NCBI GenBank assembly: GCA_037976565.1 | Contig: CP137682.1 | Span: 22,930,800-22,994,799, forward strand | Length of the DNA stretch: 64,000 nt | Direction: 5' to 3' | Source: Mesocentrotus franciscanus | Lineage: Eukaryota; Echinodermata; Echinoidea; Camarodonta; Strongylocentrotidae | In this document: one piece after another, positions 8,433 through 58,735 of the stretch | Layout of the letters: the number at the start of each line of letters is the position of its first letter | Numbering within the stretch: the first letter of the stretch is position 1 | Notes under the pieces: model-generated | What the model saw: only the letters and a program-made list of their open reading frames with translations | The model's database searches: none | What the model was told of the DNA's origin: nothing | Made by a program: the position numbers and the translations under genes

Positions 8433-9728
8433 CCATGGTCCTGGAACTCATAATGGACATCTAAAACTAGGCTCTAAAGAATGACTGCCCATGGTCCTGG
8501 AACTCATAACGGACATCTAAATAGAGAACGGAACTAGGCTTTAAAGAATGACTGCCCATGGTCCTGGAACTCATAATGGACATCTAAATAGAGAACAGAA
8601 CTAGGCTCTAAAGAATGACTGCCCATGGTCCTGGAACTCATAATGGACATCTAAATAGAGAACGGAACTAGGCTTTAAAGAATGACTGCCCATGGTCCTG
8701 GAACTCATAATGGACATCTAAATAGAGAACAGAACTAGGCTCTAAAGAATGACTGCCTATGGTCCTGGAACTCATAATGGACATCTAAATAGAGAACAGA
8801 ACTAGGCTCTAAAGAATGACTGCACATGGCCCTGGAACTCGTAATGGACATCTAAATAGAGAACGGAACTAGGCTCTAAAGAATGACTGCACATGGTCCT
8901 GGAACTCATAATGGACATCTAAATAGAGAACGGAACTAGGCTCTAAAGAATGACTGCACATGGTCCTGGAACTCATAATGGACATCTAAATAGAGAACAG
9001 AACTAGGCTCTAAAGAATGACTGCACATGGCCCTGGAACTCGTAATGGACATCTAAATAGAGAACGGAACTAGGCTCTAAAGAATGACTGCACATGGTCC
9101 TGGAACTCATAACGGACATCTAAATAGAGAACGGAACTAGGCTTTAAAGAATGACTGCCCATGGTCCTGGAACTCATAATGGACATCTAAATAGAGAACA
9201 GAACTAGGCTCTAAAGAATGACTGCCCATGGTCCTGGAACTCATAATGGACATCTAAATAGAGAACGGAACTAGGCTTTAAAGAATGACTGCCCATGGTC
9301 CTGGAACTCATAATGGACATCTAAATAGAGAACAGAACTAGGCTTTAAAGAATGACTGCCCATGGTCCTGGAACTCATAATGGACATCTAAATAGAGAAC
9401 GGAACTAGGCTTTAAAGAATGACTGCCCATGGTCCTGGAACTCATAATGGACATCTAAATAGAGAACAGAACTAGGCTCTAAAGAATGACTGCCTATGGT
9501 CCTGGAACTCATAATGGACATCTAAATAGAGAACAGAACTAGGCTCTAAAGAATGACTGCACATGGCCCTGGAACTCGTAATGGACATCTAAATAGAGAA
9601 CGGAACTAGGCTCTAAAGAATGACTGCACATGGTCCTGGAACTCATAATGGACATCTAAATAGAGAACTGAACTAGGCTCTAAAGAATGACTGCACATGG
9701 TCCTGGAACTCATAATGGACATCTAAAT
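8399..9728 (+). repeat. 67-bp minisatellite, ~20 copies
   Basis: Tandem unit of 67 bp (tagagaacggaactaggctc ... aatggacatctaaa) repeated about 20 times with single-base variants (tgcccatgg/tgcacatgg, aacgg/aacag, ctcta/cttta). The first unit overlaps the last SFI1-like coding exon (8370-8432). The unit therefore contains the final codons (RTELGSK..) plus the stop and adjacent 3' sequence, and most later units keep the same short frame ending in TGA. Two multi-unit blocks (about 8520-8900 and 9115-9590) share the same order of variants, so amplification also involved larger segments. Confidence 0.95.
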
Positions 9729-10030
9729 ATGTTGATAGAGTTTCGTGCAGTGGATACTTGTTATGAAACGCTCTGGGGCTGTAATCTGAAAATGATGTTA
9801 TCTTATACTTAAAGAAAAATGATGTTAATTATCATAATAAACTCAAAATACACAAAATTAACAATTACCATTGGTGCTTGCACGAATGTCTCTTTTAACT
9901 TTACGGGATTGAAGCCAGCCTCACACACACATCAACCAATGGCTTGTTCTAATTTTGATTTCTTATGACAGTTAACATTGTTTTACTAACGGATAACATC
10001 GTTTTCAGAAAACCACCGTTATAATATAAG
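9729..10030. other. Intergenic sequence downstream of SFI1-like gene
   Basis: AT-rich, no recognised gene or repeat. It probably contains the 3' UTR or polyadenylation region of the SFI1-like gene (for example 'aataaa' near 9836), but no site can be fixed. Confidence 0.4.
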
Positions 10031-20038: not shown

Positions 20039-23000
20039 AAGAAGAAGAAGAAGAAGAAGAAGAAGAAGAAGAAGAAGAAGAAGAAGAAGAAGAAGAAGAA
20101 AGAGAACAAGAACAAGAACAAGAACAAGAACAAGAACAAGAAGAAAAAGAAGAAGAAGAAGAAGAAGAAGAAGAAGAAGAAGAAGAATGAGAACAAGAAG
20201 AATGAGAACAAGAAGATGAGAACAAGAAGAAGAAACAAAGAACAAGAACAAAAAGAAATTACTGTTCTTAGGCTCTATCTATTTTATCAAAGATTAGAGG
20301 GGGAAACTCATGACCCACTTTCCTCTTAATACTCAATATTTAAACTTTTATTATAGGAACTTACTCTTGAGTAGCCTGATCACGCTGCTTCTGTGCCTCC
20401 TTTAATTTCTTTTCGAGAACCTACAATTACAAAAAATGAGAGAAAAAAAGGAAAAATGTAATTTACTATTCCCAAATGCATTGCAGCTTCTTCTTTTTCT
20501 TCTTCTTCTTCAGGTGCAGTATAGGCTACCGGTGTATTGTCGTACTGTTGAGGTGCAGTGCAGATGTGTGTATAATGTCTGATAAAAGGTACAGTTAACT
20601 GAGTGCGAGTAAAAACAACTACCGTTTTAGCGGAGCTGGGTCTTTTGTACCTCTTGATTACATTAACGGTGTTTTGAGGGAGGGAGTTCCAGAGTCGTAT
20701 TGCATCCAAGAAGAAGCTCCTCTGGTAGACCAGCGTTCGGGCAAAAGGAAATATGATCTTCTTGGAATGCCCTCTGTGCAGGGATGTACATGTAGATGAA
20801 GTGAGGAAAGTGTGTGGGATGTCTATCAGCAAGCTGGTGAGGCGATAGATCATCACCACCTTAGCCTGTGCCCTGCGTTCTTGTAATGTTGGCCACTTGA
20901 GCTGGTTCAGCATGGCTGCTACGCTGCTTGTTCTGCGGAGGTCATTGAAGATGAAGCGGACATAGCGCCGTTGAACCATTTCAAGCTTCTTGATGTTTGC
21001 TTGCGTATGAGGGTCCCATATTATTGACGTAGGTAAAAAACTATCAAAATCGATTCAAACGCCTAATTACTCTTATGATAAATACCTTGTTAACCCAAAT
21101 TTAAATTCATTTTATGTTAAATCAACAAGTATTCATGAAATTACCAAATTGTCTTCTATGTTAAAAATAGATAAATCAAGTGGACCTGACGGCATTTCAC
21201 TTAAAGTTGTTAAAAATTGTATTCATTATTTTGTTAATCCATTGTGTGACATATTTAATAAATCTTTGAATAGTGGAATCGTCCCAGATAAATTAAAAGT
21301 TGCCAAAATTGTACCCTTATACAAAAAGAATGATGTTAAAAATATAGAAAATTATAGACCCATAGCTTTGCTATCTGTTTTTGCAAAATTGTTGGAAAAA
21401 GTAATGCATAAAAGGTTGTATGATTATTTACTAAAATATAATGTTCTTATTTCAGAGCAGTTTGGTTTCCGTAAAAACCATAGCACTGATTTGAGTATTG
21501 TGAATTTTTCTAAAAATATTCTACATGAAATTAATAATGGAATGTTTTGTTATGGATTATTTATGGATCTATCTAAGGCATTTGACACCATCGACCACCA
21601 TATTTTACTTAAAAACTATACCATTACGGTGTACGGTGTACAGTATACCTCATCAGTGGTTTTCTGATTATTTATATAATAGAAAACAATATGTGGTGGT
21701 CGATGGTGTCGAATCTGATTATATGGATGTAAATACGGGAGTTCCGCAAGGATCGGTTCTCGGACCACTTTTATTTATCATATATATGAATGATATTATT
21801 AGCTCATCCAAATCACTTATGTTTTCATTATTTGCTGATGATACGGTTGTTTATTATTCTCATTCCAATGTAACATGCTGAGTTTCTATTTTAAATGAAG
21901 AGTTAATTAAATTGAATGATTGGTTTAAATGTAATAAATTGTTTTTGAATTATGAAAAAACAAAATATTTAATTTTTCACACAAAGAAAAAGAAAGTTCC
22001 AAATGTCAAATGTAACTATCGAACGACAACCAAGTATTATTTTTTTAGGTACTAATAATGAAGAAACTCTTGATTGGAAATATTATATTTGTTCTAAAAT
22101 TTCTAGAAGTATTGGTGTCTTATCTAGACTAAAGAATTTTCTCCCAAGGAACATATTAATGAATATTTACAATGCAACAATTCTTCCCCACTTAAATTAT
22201 TGCAATATCACTTGGGGTAATACTTAAAAAACAAAACTATTAAAAATGTATATGTTACAGAAACGGGCAGCTCGCTTAATTACAAATAGTCATTATATGT
22301 CTTCAAGTTTACCACTATTTATAAAACTGAAAATTATTCCTGTATATGACTTGATCAAACTTAATACATGCATATTTATGTTTAAATTTCATAATAAACT
22401 GTTACCATCTGTTTTTATTAATATGTTCCAAACAAATTCTTCTATTCACAATTACCCCACTCGTCAAAGTCAAAACTTACATCACCCACTTTGTCGTTCA
22501 ACTTCACTGTATAATTCTTTATCATTTATTGGGGTACGGGAATGGAATTCCTTGAATCATGACCTAAGATCCAGTACTACAATTAGCAAATTTAAATCAA
22601 TGTACAAAAAAGATATTTTTCAAAGAATGGTATCCAATATTGAGTAGACTTCTCTTTCCCATCTTTCTTCTACTTGTATCTCTTTCTTTCCTATTTTTTC
22701 GCTCCTTTCTATTCTTTCTGTGTAACCTTCTTTATGGATGTGTGTGTGTGTTGATGTGTATGTGCTAATGTGCGTACTTGTATTATGCAAGTCTTTACTT
22801 TTTATTGTTAATTTATGTTAATTTAGGTTTATTTGCACTTTTATGTTTTGTTTAATATGTAATTGTTTATCAGTCTATTCTGTGTGTTATAGCGCTTAGA
22901 GACTTCGGTGGTAAGCGCTTTATAAGAGACGTTGTTATTATTATTATTATTATCTTGTTATTGTTTGTTACAGGGCCCCGATTACAAGCAGATTTCTGCT

Positions 23001-26000
23001 TCTAAGGGGTCCTAACCATTATATTGTATATTGTATATTTTTCATTGTAAATTGTTTTATACTGGTTGAATAAAGAATTGAATTGAATTGATACTCCATG
23101 ATTGGTTGAAGGAGAGTATTGTAGCACAGTTCATTAACCTTTCTAGGGCATGGTTGGATATTCCTTTGAAGAAACTAGAAAGGCATGGGTGGAGTTGGCC
23201 TTTTTGGTGACAGAGTTGATAAGTTGGTTCCAGCTGAGGTTCTTCTGCAACTCAACACCTAGATACTTTGTGGTATTTTTATAATCCAGGGTCTGTCCGT
23301 GGATGGAGTAGGATTTGATGATGGGTTTGCGTTTATTGGTGACATGGAGAACCTGACATTTCTGTGAGTTGAATTCCATCAGCCAATCACGCTCCCAGCA
23401 TTGGAGCGGGTAAAGATCCTCTTGGAAACGTGGGCATCTTCCTCCGTCTTTGATGTTGCTGTATAGCATACAATCATCACCGAAGAGCCTGACTGTTGAA
23501 TTTAGGGAGAGGTACTCTGGCAGATCGTTGATGAAGAGGAGAAACAGCATTGGGCCAATAACACTGCCTTGCGGGACGCCAGATGTTACTTGGCTGGTGT
23601 TGGAGATGGATCCTTCCAGTACAAACTTTTGGGTCCTGTTACTCACTACTCAGGAAGTAAAAAACCAATGCGTGTGTGTGATCCAGGATTCCATAGAATT
23701 GGAGCCTTCCATGGGGAACCTTGTCAAATGCTTTGGAGAAATCAAAGAGTACCATGTCTAATCATTCTCTGTCATCGATGGCTTTGGCGAGGTCCTGGAC
23801 AGCAAGGACAAGCTGGGAGACGCAGGATCGTTTCTTGCGAAAGCAATGTTGTGCATCAGACAAGATGTTGTGGTCTTCAAGGTGGGTCTGAACCCATGAT
23901 GCTGCTGAGAACGATGTTCTCCAGTACTTTACAGGTCACTGACATCAGAGAGATAGGCCTGTAGTTCTCTGGCTTGCTACGGTCACCTTTCTTGAAGATT
24001 GGAGCAATATTAGCCATCTTCCATTCATCGGGTATGACACCCTGGTTAAGGGAGGCTCGGAAGAATAAAGTGAATACAGGTGTCAGTTTGGTGGCAAGTC
24101 CCTTCAGAAGTCTGGCTGGGATTTGGTAAGGACCGTGGCTTTATGAACATCAAGCTCAGACAGGATCTTCAGAACCCCTGGTGGAGAGATAGTAATGTGA
24201 TCCATCATCCATGGCTGGGTATGGGCTTTGCCCTTTGTCTCTCAAACTGGTCATATCTTCATTGTAGTTGAAGACGGATGAAAACTGATGACTTAGGATG
24301 TTCGCCTTTGAGAGGCTGCCTGAATAAGTTAATCCATCAGATGATTTTCAATGGAACCACACCTGAAGCATCACATTGCTTGCTGTTTATAAAACTCCAG
24401 AAATGCTTTGGGTTACAGGTGGTGTCTGGGCTAACAATGTCTGTCAGGTACCTGTTCTAGGCTTGTTTGCAGGTGATTCGTGCCGGTTTCTTGACTTCCA
24501 GGTATTTCTCACGGTCAGCTTGGACATTACTACCCTTGGCTATGTTGTTATAGCATTTCTTTTTCTTCTGAGAGAGGCTTTTCATAGTACGCGTAATCCA
24601 AGGTTGGTTGCACCTAGTTGATGTCATCATGGATGGAGTCAAGTAAATGAGTCAAGGATGTTTTGATGTCAGACCACATGGTTTGTATGGAGCTAGATCT
24701 GCAGTATTGATCAGTGAAGCCTTTCTGAAATGCAAAACAATCTTTCTAAATGTTTTCTACATCTGCATGCTTCCAGAGGAAGATCTTTCTCTTTACAGGT
24801 TTGTGTCTGCTGGTTTCAACAGATGACACTACAGATACAATGTCATGATCACCGATCCCGGGCAGCGAAAAACACTTGTCAACGAGGGTAGGCCCGTTGG
24901 TGAGGAAGAGGTCTATGCAGTTGTTCTGTCTTGTTGGGAAATCTACAATTTGTTGTACGTCGCAGTTTTGAAGCATATCCAAGAACCTCATGCTGGTGGC
25001 ATTATGGTTTGGGTTGCCTTCAATTGCTTGGGTTAGTGTTACCCAATTGACGTACATGTAAGGGAGGTTCTATCACCTCCAAGCCACAGAACTGCGTTGC
25101 GGTGCTGAGTGTGAAACTGTGAATATCCTCCATGATTACCCAGGATTATATCAGGGTCTGTAGAGTCAATCAGAGAGCCTAGTTCTTCCTTTTTATTTTT
25201 GGCACTTTGGAAATTGATGCTGAAGATTTTAATCTTACGCTTGATTTGATTTCCTTTCATCAAAGTTCTTTGGCGAGCTGGAGATGAAGAAGCTAGTGGA
25301 GGACCTGGCCTAGGTGGTCCTGTGGAGCTACTAGTGTCAGTAGACTGTGAAGTAGAAGTCAAGCTGTCATAAATGTTACTTGTTTCCATTTGAAAAGAGT
25401 CAAACAGGCTTGTGGAGAACTGCGGCATACCACGAAACATTTGAATGTGCCAGGGCCTCGTATACAGGAGTTGACATTTGCATGCACTCGACATGATGCC
25501 ATTGGTTACAGTCATCACACGCTACACCCCTTTGCTTCCATGTAACTGGACGGTCACAAATCTGGCAGGGGTACTTGATGGTAGGGCCAGGATTCAATTC
25601 CACATCTAAGGCATTTGAGAGGAGAAGAAGGGTGAGGTATAGGAGAGATAGTGCCTTGCTGTGGCATGAAATGCATGTGTTTACTTCAGGTCTCCTTTGA
25701 ACTTGCAGAATGTGCAGGGTGTTCTTTTCTACAGCTCCCTTGGATGAGCTTGAAAAACCTCTCTGTACTAGCCTGGGTTGATTTATATGCCAGGGGCCCT
25801 CTTTTCTCGAAACCGTCATAAGCCTAACTTCTTGACAAAATCAGCGTTAGTAAGCTAATTGTCTGCTACGTGTTTCACGAAGCCCTCTTTGCCAAGATCA
25901 AGGACAACATCCTGACTAATTAATTGGGTATAATATGGCCTGCAAAAAAGGACAAGAAATCCTCCAGCTATGATCTTTCTACTCACTCACTTAAAAAGGG

Positions 26001-36376: not shown

Positions 36377-39160
36377 CCAGTCGATTGATTGATTGATTTG
36401 TATTCGTCAAGCTTCAAACAAACAACAATATACAAGAATAACAGATCAAAATTAAGTCAGCTTGAACAGGATAACCCACGAACTTAAGCTCGAGAGGTTT
36501 TTTCCATGCAGTGGGGTCCCCGACATACATGTACAAAATTAATAAGTTAAAATTATTTTATTATTATAGTAATTTACAGACAGATAAGAAAAAAAAACAT
36601 ATTAAAGATAATAATGATGATGATAATAATAACGACATTAAACTGATGATAGAAATGATAATAAGTGAAAAAGAAGGAAGAGAAGGTTGAAGAAAAAAGG
36701 AGGAGGAGGAGGAGGAGGAGGAGGAGGAGGAAGATTAAAATAATGATGAATATGTTGAATTTCTATAACGAACAAAAACATAAGTATATACAAAAATAAA
36801 AAGTATGAAACGGCAGAAGAAAAAAAAATCTGTATTCAGGCTATATCAATCATATAACATTGTTATTCGCTTCTCTCCTCTGACTCTCAAGTGTTAGGTA
36901 TTCCTTTAATTTCCTCTTTAAATGAGCAAAGTTTTCTACTTCCTTTAGTATAAGAAGGGAATTCCAATGTTTTATGGCAATATAATAAAACGAATTTCCA
37001 ATACTACAGTGTACCTACTCTTTCTGGTAAGTTAAAGTTGAATCGGCTATTTCTTGTATTATAATCATGTAAGTCAGTAACAAGATCGAAGTTGGATCGA
37101 ATATAATGATTCGACCTAGTAGTATGATATATTTTATGCACGTAATTGCAAAACGAGTTGTTTTGATCTTTGAGTTCATGAGTTCGTGGACCAGAACAGT
37201 TGATGAATCTTACCTTTTTGTTCTGTATAATTTTCAACTTCTTTAATTGATCTGACTTGTTTATGCTACTATACCATGCAGGCCTTGCAGGGTTAGCATA
37301 GTCAAATAAACATTGAATAAGAGCAAAACAGAGTATACGTCTTGCTTTTAAATCCATACAACTTTGACATGTGTACACAAATTTCAGATGAGCATTTATT
37401 TTGCTTTTTTTTTACAACTGATTCTACTAAAGATGAAAATGAAATTCCGCTAGCCAACTCAATGCCTAAATACTTCACAGATTCTTTTCTCTTGATTACT
37501 TAATGATTATTGTGTGTCACTTTGAATTCAAATGACTTTTTAGAACTACTTTTAGAACAAAACAAAAAGCTTTCTGTTTTTCCCAAGTGTAAAGAAAGCT
37601 TATTATCAGTCATCCAGTCGACACACGTAGACAGCTGCTCACTAAGCTTTTCCTCAACATATTTTGGATTAGGATTTGAATAAAGTAGTACGCTGTCATC
37701 TGCGTACAATAATAGTTTAAAGTCTTTTATACAAATACACATACCATTGGTATAACTTGTAAATAGAATTGGGCCTAAAATGCTTCCCTGCATGAGGATC
37801 ACCGCAGGTTGTAGACATTCGTTTGGAACGAATATCATGAATGGTCACTACTTGGTGTTGATTAGACAAGTAGGATCTGAACCACTCTAAACTTGCCTTA
37901 TTAAAACCCATTCGTTGTAACTTCTTCAATGAGACGCAATGATTAACTGTATCAAAAGCTTTTTTGCAGATCAAGGAGCAGTGGAGCACCATACCAACAA
38001 AGAGCTCTTGGGAAGTTTCTGTCCTCAAATAATCAGTCAAATGAGTTAGACATGTTTCAGTCGAATAGTCATGTCGAAAACCAGATTGAAATTCATAAAT
38101 TATATCGTTTTCTTTGAAGTATTTTTCAAATTGAACACATACCGATTTTTGTAGAATCTTTGATGCTACGCTTAAAACACTAATAGGCTATAGTATAATA
38201 GCTAACATCAGGTTTATCTTTCGTTTTATAAAGTGGAGTCACTTTTGCTATTATCCTCTGGAAAAGTACTCGTCAAGATATAGGTTCATTAAAGCTCCGA
38301 TAGGTCATGCACTAGTTTGGCCAGGAGGGATTATAGAGGGATTAGCGTGGTCACTGACAGGTGGTTATCTCATAAACTCAGCTGTCAATAATATTAACAT
38401 AAGAAAAAGAGAATCACGGGGGACCAATTAACGGGCACGTATACGCTTAGGCATGTTTTCTACATAATTATAGAGGGAGCAAGTACGTATAGCTACAAGT
38501 AGTACAGTGGGGCTTTAAGTAACTTAAAGGCTTATAATAAAACCTTCGCACCATCTTTTAGAAATTTAGCTGGAATCATGTCTAACCCAGTACTTTTTGA
38601 TACATTCAATTTACGTAACTCTTTGAAAACAAATTGTTCACTGATTGGTAATAACTCGAAGCTGTTTTCACATAGTACGCCTTTTCTTTCGTAAGACTCA
38701 CGAATACAATCATTGTCTGCGCTGAAAAGGTCTTTGGAAGGGGGGGGGGGTTGTCTGCTACTAATTTGGCAGCCACATTATAAATAAGAATTGAATTCAT
38801 TAGGGATGGCCATCTTATCATGACATAATTCCCCATCGATTGTTAACAGATTCTTGTTCTTTTCTCTTATTTTTTAATCCTAAGTTTTTTAGATTTTGCC
38901 AAAGCTTTTTCGAATCATTTTTTTATTTTCTTCTATCTTGTTTTGTAAGTAATCGAGTTAAGCCTTTTTCACCTCTCTTTGGACCATATTTCTTAATACC
39001 CTGTATCTTTTATAGGGCGTCTCATCTTTTGCTCTTTTCCTCATTTTTTGGTACACTATATTTCTCTCCGGGAAAGAATATCTTTAGTCACCCAATTTTC
39101 TGATCTTTGTTTGATTCTAATCCGTTTCAGTGGCGCTATCATAATTTATTCAAAGTTGAG
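36377..39160 (-). mobile_element. LINE-C: degraded non-LTR retrotransposon (RT)
   Basis: Minus strand. Decayed pre-RT region ~39130-38850 (WSKERCKKA, LDYLQNKIEE-like). RT: KAFDTVNHCVSLKKLQRMGF, LEWFRSYLSNQHQVV (38040-37850), SILGPILFTSYTNGM, YADDSVLLYSNPNP and LSLHLGKTESFLF (37838-37500). C-terminal part: LCFALIQCLFDYANPAWYSS-like (37378-37004). The 3' end is marked by an aatc tetranucleotide tail (gattgattgattgatt, ~36377-36396, on plus). Several frameshifts and stops, so it is inactive. A MITE sits in it at 38.29-38.52 kb. CR1/Jockey-group affinity is inferred. Confidence 0.8.
38288..38520. mobile_element. ~230-bp MITE (attaaagc ends) inside LINE-C
   Basis: From 'cattaaagctccgataggtc' to 'acagtggggctttaag'; short inverted ends TTAAAGC/GCTTTAA. 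A homologous copy lies inverted at 61033-61208, sharing 'cactagtttggccaggaggg', 'gtcactgacaggt.gttatc' and 'attaacataagaaaaa.g'. Confidence 0.7.
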
Positions 39161-39293: not shown

Positions 39294-39515
39294 ATCTGAT
39301 AGAATCCGGAAGTAACTCGGACCAAAGACAACTCGGCCCAGCTGCCAAAACGGTCAGTTTTTATCATTTTACCCTAACCCTAACTCTAACCCTAACCCTA
39401 ACCCTAACTCCAACCCTAACTCTAACCCTAACCCTAAACCAGCAAAAACTGACCGTTTTTGCAGCTGGGCCGAGTTGTCTTTGCATGGTCCGAGTTAGCC
39501 CGACTCCATCTGATA
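39294..39515. mobile_element. Hairpin MITE with telomeric-repeat loop, 8-bp target duplication
   Basis: ATCTGATA at 39294-39301 and 39508-39515 flanks 206 bp (39302-39507). The arms carry GTAACTCGGACCA..AAGACA + ACTCGGCCCAGCTGCCAAAA + CGGTCAGTTTTT and are inverted at the right (aaaaactgaccgtttttgca .. ccgagtta). The loop (~39371-39441) is ccctaa repeats with a few variants (ctctaa, ctccaa). The 8-bp duplication fits hAT-type or related transposases (family knowledge). Confidence 0.85.
39371..39441. repeat. Interstitial telomeric (CCCTAA)n tract
   Basis: About 11-12 units of ccctaa/ctctaa/ctccaa, equivalent to TTAGGG on minus, the animal telomere repeat. It lies exactly between the two arms of the hairpin MITE. 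Confidence 0.95.
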
Positions 39516-39519
39516 TCAT

Positions 39520-41905
39520 TAGGGCTCGGTGTAAAAATGTCAGAGGAAAAAATGTCCGAGGTAAAAATGTCCGAGGTAAAAATGTCCGAGGAAAAAATCT
39601 CCGAGGTTAAAATGTCAGAGGTAAAAATTAATGTTAGAGGTAAAAAAAATATTATACAAAAGCGTGTTACATATTGGTAATGGTTGTATATTAGGCTAAT
39701 CGAAAAGATATAACGAAGGATTCTCTGCAGTCATGAATTTCAGCGCTGCTTTATTTTCTTCTTTCTTTAACTTTTATTTACCTTTCTGCCCGAAATTGTG
39801 ACTTTTTGCCCGATTATTGCCGAGGAAGACGGGGAGACGGGGGCCGGGGGGGGGGTATCCTTCTTTTGGGGTCATAGTGACCCGGCTGCCTCCCCCTCAT
39901 AATTTGTCTAAGCAAGGTTAGTGATACTGGTACACTGAGCAAACTTCTGGAGAAAAGAATGTCTAAAATCGAGAAGTTTGGCCATGAATTATAGGCCGAG
40001 TTGTGGCTAGATGGTGTAATCATTAAATAAAAAGAAAAGTCATCACAGCTCCCCAAAAGAGGATACTATCACGCCTGTGAGTCCTCCCCCCCCCACTTCA
40101 CCGTCCCTTCTGAAGATTGTTGGACATTTTAACAGCGTGGCAATGACTACTATAAAATGTAATTTCCTACAAATGCATATTTCCAACAATGTCACTTTCT
40201 TGTGGGCTTGATACTTTCGGACACTTTGATAATTATACAAAGCAGAAAGCCGCCCATGTTACATCTATAACCGCACCATCACATTCCAGAGAAGCGCGCG
40301 CTTTGCAAAGAGTTCAATCGTCGATCACTATTGCGGTATAAATAGTCTGGGTGAACATCAATATTATAAGCAGCTTTGATTCTCTGATACAAAGCAGAAA
40401 GCCACCGCACCATCGCATTCCAGATAAGCGCGCGCTTTGCAGATGTTCTGTTTAAGCTACATCGTTCTATTATTATTTGCTGTGAGAGACCAAACTCTGA
40501 AATTGACAAATATTTATTCATTAGTAACATATCAGAAACATAGTTTTACTGTACACATTTAGAGCATCATGATACTGCTTGTATACATGATAATATATAA
40601 TTGTTTGAAGGATATTTGGTGCAAGATTTATAATGTGTGCTGGCATACACTGTATACGACAGTTTCCAGCAGGTACATATTCGTACAAGTCTACACATTA
40701 AACAAAATGCATCATGAATTTGGCAGAAAAAAAACAGTTGATACTTAGGGACTTAAACTGTATTTCTCCCACGTTTCTTAATCACAAACATGATTTTTTT
40801 TTAAATATAAAGTTACACAGTGTTATGGTCGAAAGCACATGACAAAATACCTGGCTAGATATGTCTCAACGTTTACTACTAGGCCCACTATCTGACATTC
40901 TTCAAGCGAAGCTTTGATATTGTTTGTTAAACTTTTGTAATAAAGTATTGATGAGGGGAACAAAGCATCCGTGTCTTTTTCTTAATGTTTTCTTGTCATA
41001 ACAGTCTTTGCTGGGATGGACATGAAGATGGGTCTAAGTACTGAATTTCTGGAATTTCTGTGCGATCTTTATAACTGATTCCCCGTTTTATCTCATTCAA
41101 TCTTAATACATGTATTATAATGTGCTTAGGCCTACTTCTTCAAAATCAAAAAAACATTAAAACATCAACCAATTTAAAATATGGAAAAAATGATAGAAAT
41201 TAATATATGCAAACCTGATCACAAAATATAAGTTTCAAATTTATTTTCCACATTGTATTATCGTCAGGACACTTTGTACGAAGTACAATATAGGCCTACA
41301 CAGTCATTTATAAAATATAGTAGAATAGCCCAATAGCTTACGTCTCGACATTTTGTGTGATACTAGTACTGAGATATTATGACGGCACCAATTTTTACCC
41401 CTACATTTTTTTTGTACCCGACATTTTTACCTCCCCGTCTCCCTCGGCAATAATCGGGCAAAAAGTCACAATTTCGGGCAGAAAGGTAAATAAAAGTTAA
41501 AGAAAGAAGAAAATAAAGCAGCGCTGAAATTAATGACTGCAGAGAATCCTTCGTTATATCTTTTCGATTAGCCTAATTATACAACCATTACCAATATGTA
41601 ACACGCTTTTGTATATATATTTTTTTACCTCTATAACATTAATTTTTACCTAAGACATTTTAACCTCTGACATTTTTACCTCTGACATTTTTACCTCTGA
41701 CATTTTTACCTCTGAAATTTTTTCCTCTGAAATTTTTTCCTCTGACATTTTTTCCTCGGCGACATTTTTTCCTCCGACATTTTTTCCTCCGACAATTTTA
41801 CCTCTGACATTTTTACTTCTGACATATTTTTACCTCTGACATTGTTTACCTCTGACATTCTTACCTCTGACATTTTTACCTCTGACATTTTTACCTGGCA
41901 CCATC
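39520..41905. mobile_element. ~2.4-kb element with long inverted repeats bearing a 15-bp minisatellite
   Basis: 39525-39838 is an inverted match to ~41430-41900: tandem 'ggtaaaaatgtcaga' units lie outermost, then 'cgtgttacatattggtaatg', 'aaagatataacgaaggattc', 'tttcagcgctgctttatttt' and 'ttgcccgattattgccgagg' in mirrored order. The right array is longer (~41630-41900) than the left (39530-39645). The 1.6-kb centre shows no recognised transposase. Confidence 0.75.
39840..41370. other. Interior of the long-inverted-repeat element
   Basis: No coding region. An internal ~55-bp duplication ('aaagcagaaagcc.cc' .. 'accatc.cattccaga.aagcgcgcgctttgca') occurs at ~40238-40305 and ~40389-40441. Confidence 0.5.
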
Positions 41906-42644: not shown

Positions 42645-42735
42645 GACGGGTACAGAGTCGGGCTAACTCGGAGCCGGGGACAACTCGGCCCCTCTGGAAC
42701 CCGGCCGAGTTCGGATCCAACATACACAGTCCGGT
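42645..42735. mobile_element. Relic related to the telomeric-loop MITE
   Basis: 'gagtcgggctaactcggagc' and 'gacaactcggcccc' match the inverted right end of the 39.3-39.5 kb MITE, followed by 'ggccgagttcggatcc' in the opposite sense. No telomeric repeat here. Confidence 0.5.
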
Positions 42736-46017: not shown

Positions 46018-46485
46018 ATCTCTTTGCACGCAGTAGCTTCATGGAAAGTTGGAAACAGACAGATTATTTGAAAGAAAGTCCCTATATTTTGATCTTTTAC
46101 AATAGTTTTGATCATATTTTTATAGTACATAAAAATTAGATCTATTTTCTTTCAATCATATTTTTCTATATCAAATTGTTGAGTCTATGTAAAGAAAAAT
46201 TGAGGGCAAACTTTTTACCGTTCCAGCAAAAATCAGCTAATTATTACCGCCCCTTTGTGTATGGTAAGGGTTACCGTCTGTGTTGTACTTTCAGCTAATC
46301 TGTCCATTTCCCTGAAACTTCTGCGCGTGATGAGATGTGCAATCATGCACACACAAACTGCATTGCATTACATCCCCTCACTCACCCGTACAAAGCACTT
46401 TGTGCATGATATCAGGAAAATTGATGTGATAACAAGAATTGATGACGATTTTCATATTTCACTTCATTTGAACTTGTCATAGAAT

Positions 46486-49400
46486 ATGGAGCCAGAGAAC
46501 AAGGAATCTCGGTGTAGAGAAAACACAGGTGAATTTTCAGAGCCTGATATAGATACCCAAGAGATCAATCTAGATATGGAAAGGCCACTTGGTGATTGTA
46601 TCTTTGAAGACCTCCCTTTTGAGCTGATCCAGCGCAACTTGATCTTCGTACCCGATCGCGACCTCAAAGAATGCAGCTGTGTCTGCAAGACGTGGCGAGA
46701 AGCCGTGACCAAGCAGTCCTTTTGGAAGCAGAAATGTGAGAGGGGAGGCCAATATGTTGAAAAATACATGGCGCCGTACTTCCCGACAGATTGGAAAGAA
46801 TTCTACTTCAAGTCGCCCTTTACAAGAAACCTCATTAAGAACAGCAGTGGTCAGGGTAAGATACTGACAACAGTTTTATTTTACAAGATTTACTCCTTAT
46901 TTCATTGATAGTTTAACATTTTGCTTTTCATACTCTATGATTGACATCTCTTTTGCATCTCACTTACATTTTAGCTCATGACCTCCATTCCCCTCTCCAC
47001 CTTCAAATATCACTCTCATTGCCATTGCCACGCCTTGTTACTTCCATTCCATTTCCACCTCTAATGCTATCATTTCCATTCCATTTCCACTTCACATGGT
47101 TCTATTGTTTAGTTCTCATTTATATTCAGAACATCTCATGATCACCGTTCCATACTGTCTATCAGTTCTCCTTTTCTCTGGGTTCTTCCTTCTCTTTGGG
47201 TTCTCCCATTTATGTTGTACTATTCCATTTTTATGTTTCTGATAGGTTCTTAGTTTATGATGTCACTTATGTTCTGATCTGTTAAACATGAGTTTCTTCT
47301 AGTAAAGTCAGTGCAACACAGGATCTGGTCTCATGGACGCCTCGATCCTTGTTTTGTCTCTTTTTAAGTTGTGTGTTTAAGTGATTCCATGCAGTGTGTC
47401 CCGTGTGACATATGACATTTGACATTTCTCCATGTATTTCCTCCTTGAATGAAAAATCTCAAAATATGACTATGACTGCTGGTAGTGATACCAGAAAGCA
47501 CCAATAATCAGTGGTCATATTAAGAGTTCCTTAACTTTTGGATGAAACATGTGGATAAAAAGGCATGTCGTAAAGGATACACTGGCAGAATTGCCCTTTC
47601 GTGTTTCAGACGTGTATTTTTGTGTCACTTCTCGTAAACTTGGACCCCTTTTTTAATGCAGATAGCAAGGGAGAGTATGACCTGTGTGAATGGAAAATCC
47701 TTAGCAATGGAGGAGATCGATGGAAGGTGGAGACAGATTGTCCAGGTTCAGCCCGCCTGCCCAATGAAGTTCTCCTGCTTACTGGAGGCCAGGGCAAGAG
47801 CTTTGCTACGTCCTACGGATGGTGCGAGAGAGAACAGATCATTGACCTCTTAGAAGAAGGGTTCAGCGAAGAAATGTTGGATTGTCTGCAGCCCACTATC
47901 TTTGTTTCAGAGTGGTAGGTATGGCCAAGGGCCCATAAGCTACATGTACGCGACCCGCACATGTGCAATGCAATGCACAAATTCTGCCAAACTTCTATGG
48001 TGACTCAGCAACAAGAATGTCTCTTTGAACATCGTGATTTTTTCCACAAGTCAACTTCAGAATATGCAGAATCAGGATAAACAAGAGAAATTTATCCTAA
48101 AGCACTGAATTCTAGGACTTTAAGCCTTTGGGAAACAAAAGTGTGCAGCTTATGGCCTATCTCATCATACTCTTGCAAGAGTGTTGATGCTATGTGGAAG
48201 TTTTACTTAGGGGACAGGTTCTGTTACTAACGGCTCGTTCAGATACGATGCGGCAAAACCAGCGAGGTCTCTTTTTGATGACATAATGTGTAACACGCTT
48301 CACATTTCTCTTTCTAATAACAAAGAGCTCACCGAGTACGCGCAGAAACTAAACAAAAAATGTGGCTTTTTTGTGGCAGTTTAACTACATCATATCTGCA
48401 TGAGGCTTAAAGCAGCAAAAGCCCTCTGTATTTTATGCATACATATGTATATGTCAAGTGGCTTAATTTCATGTGTATGTGTCAGATACATAGAAGAGTG
48501 AGAGTTAAAGGGAATGCAACCTCAAAGAGTTCTAAGGTTGAGTTGAGAAAGGTGACAAATTGTTTGTGAGCTTCTTTTTCTTCTTCCTCTTCTTCTTAAA
48601 GTCGGACTTGGGTCCCGTGCAATCCATACATTGAGCAAGTGGATACGGATGCATTGAGTAGTCTACTCAGTACTCACTAGTCACTCTTAGTTTACTTGAG
48701 GGTGTATTTTAACTTGCAAAATCTCTTTTTATTTTTTTGAAGGTCACATTTTGATTATAGCATTACGGCATAGAACTACTACCGTACAAAATAAATAATT
48801 TTTGGTGATTGGTATACAAATAATACACAGGTGCGTTATGGTCGATGCAGCGCATGAGGGTATTCACTACGGTGCAATAAAATTCAAGAGGCATAGCCAA
48901 GTGTATTTTGTGCCATTGTGAATACCCGAATAGTGCTGCATCGTCATAACGTCACAAACAAAAACCTGTGTATTATTTGTTTTATAAAATGGGTCGACAA
49001 TCTTACTTAGCAAGGCGAAAACACTGTAAACCTGCAACCTTCATAAGAAAAAACGTGTGCACACAGACGATCACGGCAGCAGTGGCCTCGTAAACAGACT
49101 GTGCATGGTGCGACTTCTCGTTAACATGCATTGAATTACAGGCAGCGTGCATCATGCCTTTTTATTGCACCTTTTGCACGGCTGTTATCACCAAAATGCA
49201 CTCCCCCGCGTATATGGTAAAAAATAATGCACGGTCACGTGACCATTCTGACGCTTCTCATTGGCTACATTCTTGAACCCATTTTATAATACACTTAACC
49301 TTTCTGCTCACCTTTGTTTCCTGTGCAGGTATGCTGCCAGGTTTGATTGTGGAAATACCTATGAATTTGGCGTACAGCTCTTAAACGGCAGACCTACATC

Positions 49401-57075: not shown

Positions 57076-57384
57076 GCCTTGGTCACATTCTCATTTCCTG
57101 TAGAGAACGCCTTGCTTCATTTCCAGTTGGGCTCACTTCCTCCGAAGGGCTTCTCCACACTGGACTTTGAAGCCATTCCTGACCAATCAAGCCGCTCCGC
57201 TGAACGCCGCTTTGCTTCCAGGATCCACTTGACTGAAGGATCTTGCGCCTGGTCTTGGCTCATCTGCTCATTACTGATGCTGGATTCTATCGTAACTGCC
57301 CTTGCCTCCGCATAGCTATCTCGGGGTACCTCCACTTTCGGTGCTAATTATTCATCAGCGATTGCTGACTCCTCGAAATTCTTG

Positions 57385-58735
57385 GCGCTATACCTTCCAC
57401 GTATAGGCGCAACCTCTGCCTTCGCCTGCACACCGGCGAAACTCAAGGCGCTATACCTCCATCGTATAGGCGCTATCTCTGCCTTCTCGAAACTCCAGGC
57501 GCTATACCTTCCACGTATAGGCGCAGCCTCTGCCTTCGCCTGCACACCGGCCAAACTCCAGGCGCTATACCTTCCACGTATAGGCGCCACCCCAGGTGCC
57601 ATCTCTGCCGTGGCATTCACACAGGCGAAACTCAAGGCGCTATACCTCCATCGTATAGGCGCTATCTCTGCCTTCTCGAAACTCCAGGCGCTATACCTTC
57701 CACGTATAGGCGCCACCCCAGGTGCCATCTCTGCCGTGGCATTCACACAGGCGAAACTCAAGGCGCTATACCTCCATCGTATAGGCGCTATCTCTGTCTT
57801 CTCGAAACTCCAGGCGCTATACCTTCCACGTATAGGCGCCACTCCAGGTGCCATCTCTGCCGTGGCATTCACACAGGCGAAACTCAAGGCGCTATACCTC
57901 CATCGTATAGGCGCTATCTCTGCCTTCTCGAAACTCCAGGCGCTATACCTTCCACGTATAGGCGCAACCTCTGCCTTCGCCTGCACACCGGCCAAACTCA
58001 GGCGCTATACCTTCCACCTATAGGCGCCATCCCAGGTGCCATCTCTGCCGTGGCATTCACACAGGCGAAGCTCAAGGCGCTATACCTCCATCGTATAGGC
58101 GCTATCTCTGCCTTCTCGAAACTCCAGGCGCTATACCTTCCACGTATAGGCGCAACATCTGCCTTCGCCTGCACACCGTCGAAACTCCAGGCGCTATACC
58201 TACCACGTATAGGCGCTATGTCTGCCTTCAACTCCTAGGCGCTATACTCCCAATGTATAGGCGCTATCACTGCCGGCGCCTACACACAGGCGAGATCCAA
58301 GGCGCTATACCTACCACGTATAGGCGCTATGTCTGCCTTCAACTCCTAGGCGCTATACTCACAATGTATAGGCGCTGTCACTGCCGGCGCCTACACACAG
58401 GCGAGATCCAAGGCGCTATACCTACCACGTATAGGCGCTATGTCTGCCTTCAACTCCTAGGCGCTATACTCACAATGTATAGGCGCTGTCACTGCCGGCG
58501 CCTACACACAGGCGAGATCCAAGGCGCTATACCTACCACGTATAGGCGCTATGTCTGCCTTCAACTCCTAGGCGCTATACTCACAATGTATAGGCGCTAT
58601 CCCTGCCGGCGCCTACACACAGGCGAAATCCAAGGCGCTATACCTACCACGTATAGGCGCTATCACTGCCGGCGCCTACACACAGTCGAAATCCAAGGCG
58701 CTATACCTGCCACGTATAGGCGCTATCTCTTTCCG
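57385..58735. repeat. Palindromic minisatellite (ggcgctatac..gtatagggcgc type) inside LTR element
   Basis: The core word ggcgctatac faces gtataggcgc around a 7-9 bp centre (cttccac, ctccatc, ctaccac, tcacaat), giving hairpins every 50-60 bp. The first half (57385-58230) is built from units with 'cttctcgaaactcca', 'gcctgcacaccggc' and 'gtggcattcacacaggcg'. The second half (58230-58735) is a different ~110-bp unit with 'ttcaactcctagg' and 'gccggcgcctacacacaggc'. Long frames stay open on both strands (57382-58023 plus; 57995-57348 minus). Confidence 0.95.

What the first reader, a model, noticed from the sequence alone, without database searches (positions are those of the whole stretch)
39294..39515. 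A 206-bp MITE whose hairpin loop is telomeric repeat
Inverted arms of about 60 bp enclose ~70 bp of (CCCTAA)n, and the whole unit is bounded by the 8-bp direct repeat ATCTGATA. The telomeric tract is therefore likely to have been carried in by a transposon, not left by a chromosome fusion or a double-strand-break repair event. If the family is numerous, this would be a mechanism that scatters interstitial telomeric sites. A relic without the telomeric loop lies at 42.65-42.73 kb.
Basis: partly seen in the sequence, partly recalled or inferred. Interest (0 to 1): 0.75.

Follow-up and report, generated by a model that had tools for sequence, protein, structure and literature searches.

The report
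Telomere-carrying hairpin transposon family
A short mobile DNA element that folds into a hairpin carries chromosome-end (telomere) repeats in its loop and has scattered them through an animal genome, so many internal telomere-like sites there come from transposons and are not scars of fused or broken chromosomes.

Summary
Window 39302-39507 is a 206-bp inverted-repeat element; a 52-pair hairpin encloses 67 bp of (CCCTAA)n, and perfect 8-bp repeats ATCTGATA flank it. The host is an unnamed 773-Mb genome in 21 contigs. The family is numerous: 97 hits of a 3'-arm pattern without telomeric letters, on all 21 contigs, and 183 exact 3' termini; reversed controls 0. Of 60 such copies read, 52 have two or more CCCTAA units. 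At a fixed register, 8-bp duplications with at most one mismatch flank 36 of 67 copies, against 9 of 2000 mismatched pairs. One copy lies inside another, giving an empty site. Of 52 (CCCTAA)3 sites on contig 1, 18 are this family, 16 belong to two unrelated inverted-repeat families, 8 to a fourth group or a satellite, and 10 are unassigned. Transposition therefore scatters telomeric sites here. Unresolved: the transposase, how the tract was first acquired, and any function. Tandem-repeat MITEs are known; nine searches of an open-access library listed no title or abstract start describing a telomeric loop. I rate it a new variant of a known kind.

The parts
39294..39301 (.). left 8-bp target-site duplication ATCTGATA
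   Evidence: identical to 39508-39515
39302..39507 (+). 206-bp inverted-repeat element (family 1, subfamily B arms)
   Evidence: the near-full-length relatives listed are 76-91% identical
39302..39362 (+). 5' arm, terminus GAATCCGG..AACTCGG
   Evidence: fold; terminus resembles GAATCCGGGCTAACTCGG of other copies
39371..39437 (+). telomeric tract (CCCTAA)n, 11.2 units
   Evidence: inside the hairpin loop 39363-39443
39444..39507 (+). 3' arm, terminus CCGAGTTAGCCCGACTCC
   Evidence: terminus CCGAGTTRGCCCGACTCC found 183 times in the genome
39508..39515 (.). right 8-bp target-site duplication ATCTGATA
42654..42718 (-). family-1 relic: outer parts only, inner arms and telomeric loop deleted
   Evidence: sequence; alignment to the 3' arm of L092

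Best explanation
The unit is a non-autonomous DNA transposon of MITE type. Shown: it has asymmetric terminal inverted repeats (GAATCC.. / GGAGTC..), paired inner arms and a telomeric (CCCTAA)n loop in fixed orientation. Many copies are flanked by 8-bp direct repeats, they lie on all contigs without enrichment near contig ends, and most copies read carry the loop. Inferred: a transposase supplied in trans by an element not found here recognises the ends and inserts the unit at AT-rich 8-bp targets with a weak nTnnnnAn preference, so each jump plants a new interstitial telomeric site. The tract was probably already in an early founder of the family and is inherited as cargo. Its length then changes faster than the arms, as a slipping microsatellite would, and some copies lose loop and inner arms. 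How the founder gained the tract is not known.
For: Numerous and dispersed: 97 arm hits on all 21 contigs and 183 3' termini, reversed controls 0. 80 of the 97 lie on contigs whose length I had: KS against uniform p = 0.22, 8 within 2 Mb of an end against 8.3 expected. Loop present in samples chosen without telomeric letters: 37 of 40 and 15 of 20. Orientation: of 67 copies with both ends (17 of them found through their telomeric tract), 66 have CCCTAA on the strand ending GACTCC and none has TTAGGG on that strand. TSDs: 36 of 67 at most one mismatch, 20 perfect; control 9 of 2000. Target bias T2 20/36 and A7 22/36, p = 2e-6 against flank composition. Nested copy L050 with 7/8 duplication GGTCAGTT/GGTCAGTG; the joined host aligns through the site, with small gaps, to L092, L084, L087 and L096. 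Tract turnover: L079 and L091 have 98.6% identical arms, different flanks, 7 and 14 units; L052 and L090 98.1%, 6 and 18 units.
Against: No transposase with these ends was found. The listed 3' termini (97 + 54 = 151 places) come no closer than 65 kb to any of 25 PF12762 matches and 39 kb to any of 79 PF05699 matches; 6 PF12762 loci of 25 were read and had no match to the termini better than 5 edits in 18, but the 3.1-3.2-kb stretches may not reach the element ends. 31 of 67 copies have no duplication at the fixed register: some are shifted by a base, some decayed, some have wrongly called ends. A few copies spread by duplication of larger DNA, not by their own jump: L075/L099, L122/L123 and L085/L086 share aligned left flanks. 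T at position 4 (21 of 36) is as common as T2 and A7 and is no part of the hAT signature. L119 has perfect duplications and a non-telomeric loop, so the tract is not essential for insertion. L128, with no 5' end found, has a short stretch in the opposite orientation.
Confidence: 0.92

Rival explanations
1. Each telomeric tract was added on site during double-strand-break repair or is the scar of a chromosome fusion, and the flanking inverted repeats are incidental.
For: This is a usual origin given for short interstitial telomeric sequences (passages of PMC9693754; abstract starts of PMC7215372 and PMC8537989). Ten of 52 contig-1 sites had no family signature and could be of this kind.
Against: Related arms surround the tract genome-wide in constant orientation, 36 of 67 copies with 8-bp duplications; no clustering near contig ends.
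Confidence: 0.02
2. Origin of the tract: a real telomere was captured, either by telomerase adding repeats to a broken element end before rejoining, or by two inverted element ends flanking a terminal array.
For: The unit is exactly the metazoan telomere hexamer; three units read backwards are rare in the genome (12 against 3718 hits). Two further inverted-repeat families with unrelated arms carry the same hexamer.
Against: No intermediate was seen. The twelve contig-end stretches read carry no telomere arrays, so no true telomere could be compared.
Confidence: 0.5
3. Origin of the tract: a chance CCCTAA-like stretch in the loop grew by slippage into a microsatellite that only resembles a telomere.
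For: Tract length differs widely between copies with nearly identical arms, and units ACCTAA and CTCTAA are common (77 and 43 against 379 CCCTAA).
Against: The same hexamer in at least three unrelated families would need repeated chance births.
Confidence: 0.3
4. The copies mainly spread inside larger repeats or by segmental duplication, and the hairpin unit is a passenger, not a transposon.
For: L075/L099, L122/L123 and L085/L086 share left flanks, and L070 and L102 lie in one repeat.
Against: 36 of 67 copies have 8-bp duplications, and the 67 left 8-mers are of 62 kinds.
Confidence: 0.05

Closest known systems
Tandem-repeat-bearing MITEs, such as those of the clam Donax trunculus (title only, in the reference list of PMC5615363) and Xenopus MITEs (recalled)
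   Same: short non-autonomous element with inverted ends and an internal tandem array (from the title and recall, not read)
   Different: here the array is the telomeric hexamer, lies in the loop of a long hairpin, and recurs in at least three families with unrelated arms in one genome; whether any of those MITEs has a telomeric array was not checked
Oyster Helentron-borne satellite-like arrays (PMC7492417, title and abstract start)
   Same: mobile elements disperse short tandem arrays through a genome
   Different: rolling-circle type by its title; no telomeric unit is named in the part seen
Short interstitial telomeric sequences of mammals
   Same: short internal (TTAGGG)n tracts at many sites
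   Different: those are attributed mainly to break repair; transposon delivery appears as a proposal in the passages seen of PMC6410037 and PMC9693754
Foldback transposons (Tetris of Drosophila virilis, PMC4079207, listing and abstract start only; sea urchin TU elements, recalled)
   Same: long inverted arms
   Different: in those the tandem repeats make up arms (recalled); here they fill the loop

Membership tests
MITE (non-autonomous DNA transposon) | short, non-coding, inverted terminal repeats | tested here: met
   67 copies with both ends, 101-329 bp, median 179; hairpin fold of the window copy; coding was not tested beyond length
MITE (non-autonomous DNA transposon) | target-site duplication of constant length | tested here: met
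   8 bp, 36 of 67 at most one mismatch against 9 of 2000 control pairs
MITE (non-autonomous DNA transposon) | many dispersed, similar copies | tested here: met
   183 3' termini; 795 first-look candidates of which 40 were scored
MITE (non-autonomous DNA transposon) | autonomous partner with the same ends | tested here: inconclusive
   none near PF12762 or PF05699 matches for 151 listed 3' ends; other transposase families and the unlisted termini not tested
hAT superfamily | 8-bp duplication with nTnnnnAn bias (recalled) | tested here: met
   T2 20/36, A7 22/36, both in 11/36; a weak bias, and T4 21/36 is not part of it
hAT superfamily | termini beginning like CAGNG (recalled) | tested here: not met
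   termini are GAATCC and GGAGTC
Merlin / IS1595-like | 8-9-bp duplication (recalled) and the same termini on a PF12762 element | tested here: inconclusive
   6 of 25 PF12762 loci read in 3.1-3.2-kb stretches; none has the termini; L113 has inverted ends with AGAGTTCCTTTGCACCCCC
break-repair interstitial telomeric sequence | telomeric tract inserted without flanking inverted repeats or duplication | tested here: not met

The most novel reading that the evidence does not exclude
Unrelated hairpin transposons of this genome have repeatedly acquired a telomeric loop because the tract does something for them: it may bind telomere proteins or fold as a G-quadruplex on the extruded loop, protecting or processing the excised element, or it is regularly supplied by telomerase during failed excision repair. 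Family 2 (150 junction hits; 9-bp or longer direct repeats with CCSGG in 6 of 11 copies) and family 3 (46 junction hits) show no arm similarity to family 1.
Probability: 0.15. Interest if true: 0.85.

Novelty: new variant of a known kind. Interest (0 to 1): 0.64.

Why it matters
Interstitial telomeric sites are often read as scars of chromosome fusion or break repair, and the passages I saw of two reviews give transposon delivery as a proposal. Here a chromosome-scale genome shows it directly: 18 of 52 perfect three-unit sites sampled on one contig belong to this family and 16 more to two other inverted-repeat families. Karyotype inferences from such sites in this lineage could mislead. The families also make it testable whether a telomeric tract helps a transposon.

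Tried and rejected
Autonomous partner: PF12762 gave 25 matches; six loci were read (L109-L114) and none has the family-1 termini, though the stretches may be too short. PF05699 gave 79 matches. A script puts the nearest of 151 listed 3' ends at 65 kb and 39 kb respectively. MULE and other superfamilies were not searched.

Arms: a copy's two arms resemble each other more than arms of other copies (62 copies; 0.826 against 0.763, best permutation 0.788), but this is mostly a subfamily effect. Within subfamily A the excess is small (21 of 5000 permutations reach it); within B and C it is absent (2107 and 943 of 5000). I therefore do not claim continuing correction of one arm by the other.

Is a telomeric loop usual for hairpins here? 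No: in 184 kb (the window, which holds the element, plus twelve contig-end stretches) my scan found 22 hairpins, and only the window element had two or more telomeric units.

Host identity: one F-box protein search gave a single unnamed relative. I do not name the host. 21 contigs and a TU-like neighbour recall sea urchins, untested.

Family 4 (6 of 52 sites) and the satellite (2 of 52) were assigned by short signatures only; I do not count them as transposons. Family 3 shows a clean duplication in one of five copies (L044), so its transposon status is weaker. In one search many copies were counted in both orientations; I use, whose end-calling is wrong for some copies (for example L096), so 36 of 67 is likely low. 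In one search the family-2 parser failed on L035.

Literature searches. No listed title or abstract start describes a MITE with a telomeric loop; one search listed 15 of 106 papers and the library lacks most subscription journals. Passages only were seen of PMC6410037, PMC9693754 and PMC5615363; PMC3879986 is not held.

Full report
What is there. Window 39294-39515 reads ATCTGATA, then 206 bp, then ATCTGATA. The 206 bp fold as DNA into one hairpin of 52 pairs with an 81-nt loop (-56.8 kcal/mol, z = -15, 0 of 200 shuffles). The loop contains 67 bp of telomeric hexamer, 11.2 units at 86%. The arms are not perfect: the termini are GAATCC on one side and GGAGTC (complement) on the other, an asymmetry seen in many other copies.

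The genome. The window is part of an unnamed assembly of 773,163,409 bp in 21 contigs. Three units of CCCTAA occur 3718 times (overlapping hits, both strands), against 12 for the pattern read backwards. The twelve 10-kb contig-end stretches I read (eleven starts, one end) had no terminal telomere arrays.

Telomeric sites first. The first 100 hits, the only ones listed, fall into 52 sites on contig 1, 0-46.56 Mb, taken without regard to arms. By signature, 18 are family 1 (the window's), 11 family 2, 5 family 3, 6 family 4, 2 a satellite and 10 unassigned. So 34 of 52 are in three inverted-repeat families. Family 2 has arms GCGTCATTTTTTTCTGCGGCACAGATTGGGG.. and exact direct repeats of 9 or 10 bp around CC(G/C)GG in 6 of 11 copies, two of which (L041, L042) appear to share a site; its arm-to-tract junction is found 150 times. 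Family 3 has GTCGCC-rich ends and its junction is found 46 times. One representative of each family was compared: arms of families 1, 2 and 3 show no similarity beyond shuffles (28, 130 and 118 of 200 shuffles reach the observed scores for 1-2, 1-3 and 2-3).

Family members next, chosen without telomeric letters. The 3'-arm pattern GACCGTTTTN{5,35}CGAGTTRGCCCGACTCC hits 97 places on all 21 contigs, the exact 3' terminus 183, reversed controls 0. I read 40 of the 92 arm hits not already held (the first and third twenty of the list): 37 have two or more CCCTAA units, two (L078, L094) have one, one (L093) has none and has lost its 5' part. Of 100 listed termini 54 lie outside the arm list; I read the first 20 of the 51 not already held: 15 have two or more units, L124 and L129 have one, L116, L119 and L133 have none. 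L119 is intact with perfect duplications CTCTCCCC and a quite different loop. L133 and L116 are remnants of 28 and 24 bp between perfect duplications (ATCTAGAT, AATTCACC, read from the output): loop and inner arms have gone, as in the window relic at 42654-42718.

Insertion. With both ends fixed, 36 of 67 copies have 8-bp repeats with at most one mismatch, 20 perfect; left and right flanks of different copies match this well in 9 of 2000 draws. The 67 are 17 telomere-selected copies, 35 of 40 and 14 of 20 of the other two samples, and the window copy. The duplications favour T at position 2 (20 of 36) and A at 7 (22 of 36), p = 2e-6 against the flanks, a bias I recall from hAT elements; T at 4 (21 of 36) is equally common and not part of that signature. 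The termini are not hAT-like, so I do not file it there. L050 is a copy inside the arm of an older copy, with duplication GGTCAGTT/GGTCAGTG; after removing insert and one repeat the host aligns, with small gaps, to four other copies. Arm hits on the 16 contigs of known length (80 of 97) are spread evenly (KS p = 0.22; 8 within 2 Mb of an end, 8.3 expected) and in proportion to contig length (chi-square p = 0.53).

The tract. It lies on the same strand relative to the ends in 66 of 67 copies, the other being L119, which has none; L128, with no 5' end found, has a short reversed stretch. Copies with arms at least 98% identical and different flanks have 7 and 14 or 6 and 18 units. L031 has a tandem duplication of loop and inner arm. 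I read the tract as inherited cargo that changes in length, not as something added anew at each site; this is inference from comparison, not from observed events.

Limits. No transposase was tied to the ends. Family age, host name and any function of the loop are open. Loop counts rest on 60 copies read out of 151 listed places, the telomere-selected copies of contig 1 apart. That I found no description in print rests on nine searches of an open-access library, seen as titles and abstract starts.

Noticed in passing
window 39523-41902: A second element begins seven bases beyond the MITE's right duplication: about 2.4 kb with long inverted arms made of a 15-bp minisatellite (GTAAAAATGTCCGAG) plus a 99%-matching inner part (39690-39836 / 41431-41577), possibly flanked by ATCATTAG/ATCATGAG. 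Its build recalls sea urchin TU elements (recalled).
   Followed up: partly
L020, L027, L029, L032, L035, L038, L041, L042, L047, L048, L051: Family 2: hairpins of 129-167 bp (L035 not parsed) with 3-8 telomeric units and similar arms (150 junction hits), direct repeats such as CTCCCGGGT and CACCGGGCC; in L020 and L051 the insertion seems to lie at the centre of a longer palindrome.
   Followed up: partly
L015, L017, L022, L044, L046: Family 3: element with GTCGCC-rich ends and a long telomeric tract (286 bp in L044); 46 junction hits in the genome.
   Followed up: partly
L036 and L045: A tandem satellite with CCCTAGGACACCGGGTC.. units contains short telomeric stretches.
   Followed up: no
L119: Family-1 copy with a non-telomeric loop that is itself a nested palindrome made of family-1-like end letters (GGGCTAACTCGGCCGAGC).
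   Followed up: no
L057: The family-4 motif GGAGCAATTGTC (one edit allowed) is hit 16 times on the minus strand of the first 10 kb of contig 1, mostly 180 bp apart: a satellite sharing letters with family 4.
   Followed up: no
L070 and L102: Two 5'-truncated family-1 copies lie in the same kind of larger repeat (left flanks align over 192 of 200 bases).
   Followed up: partly
window 21011-25840 and 37720-38187: Fragments of reverse transcriptase (PF00078) and a PHD-finger ORF near one of them (25403-25840), as in LINE-type elements.
   Followed up: no
window 46483-47915: ORFs of an F-box gene with an F-box associated (FBA) domain.
   Followed up: no
window 8465-9729 and 57365-58727: Two large tandem arrays: a 67-bp unit x 18.9 at 96% and a complex GGCGCTATACC..CGTATAGGCGC array.
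   Followed up: no
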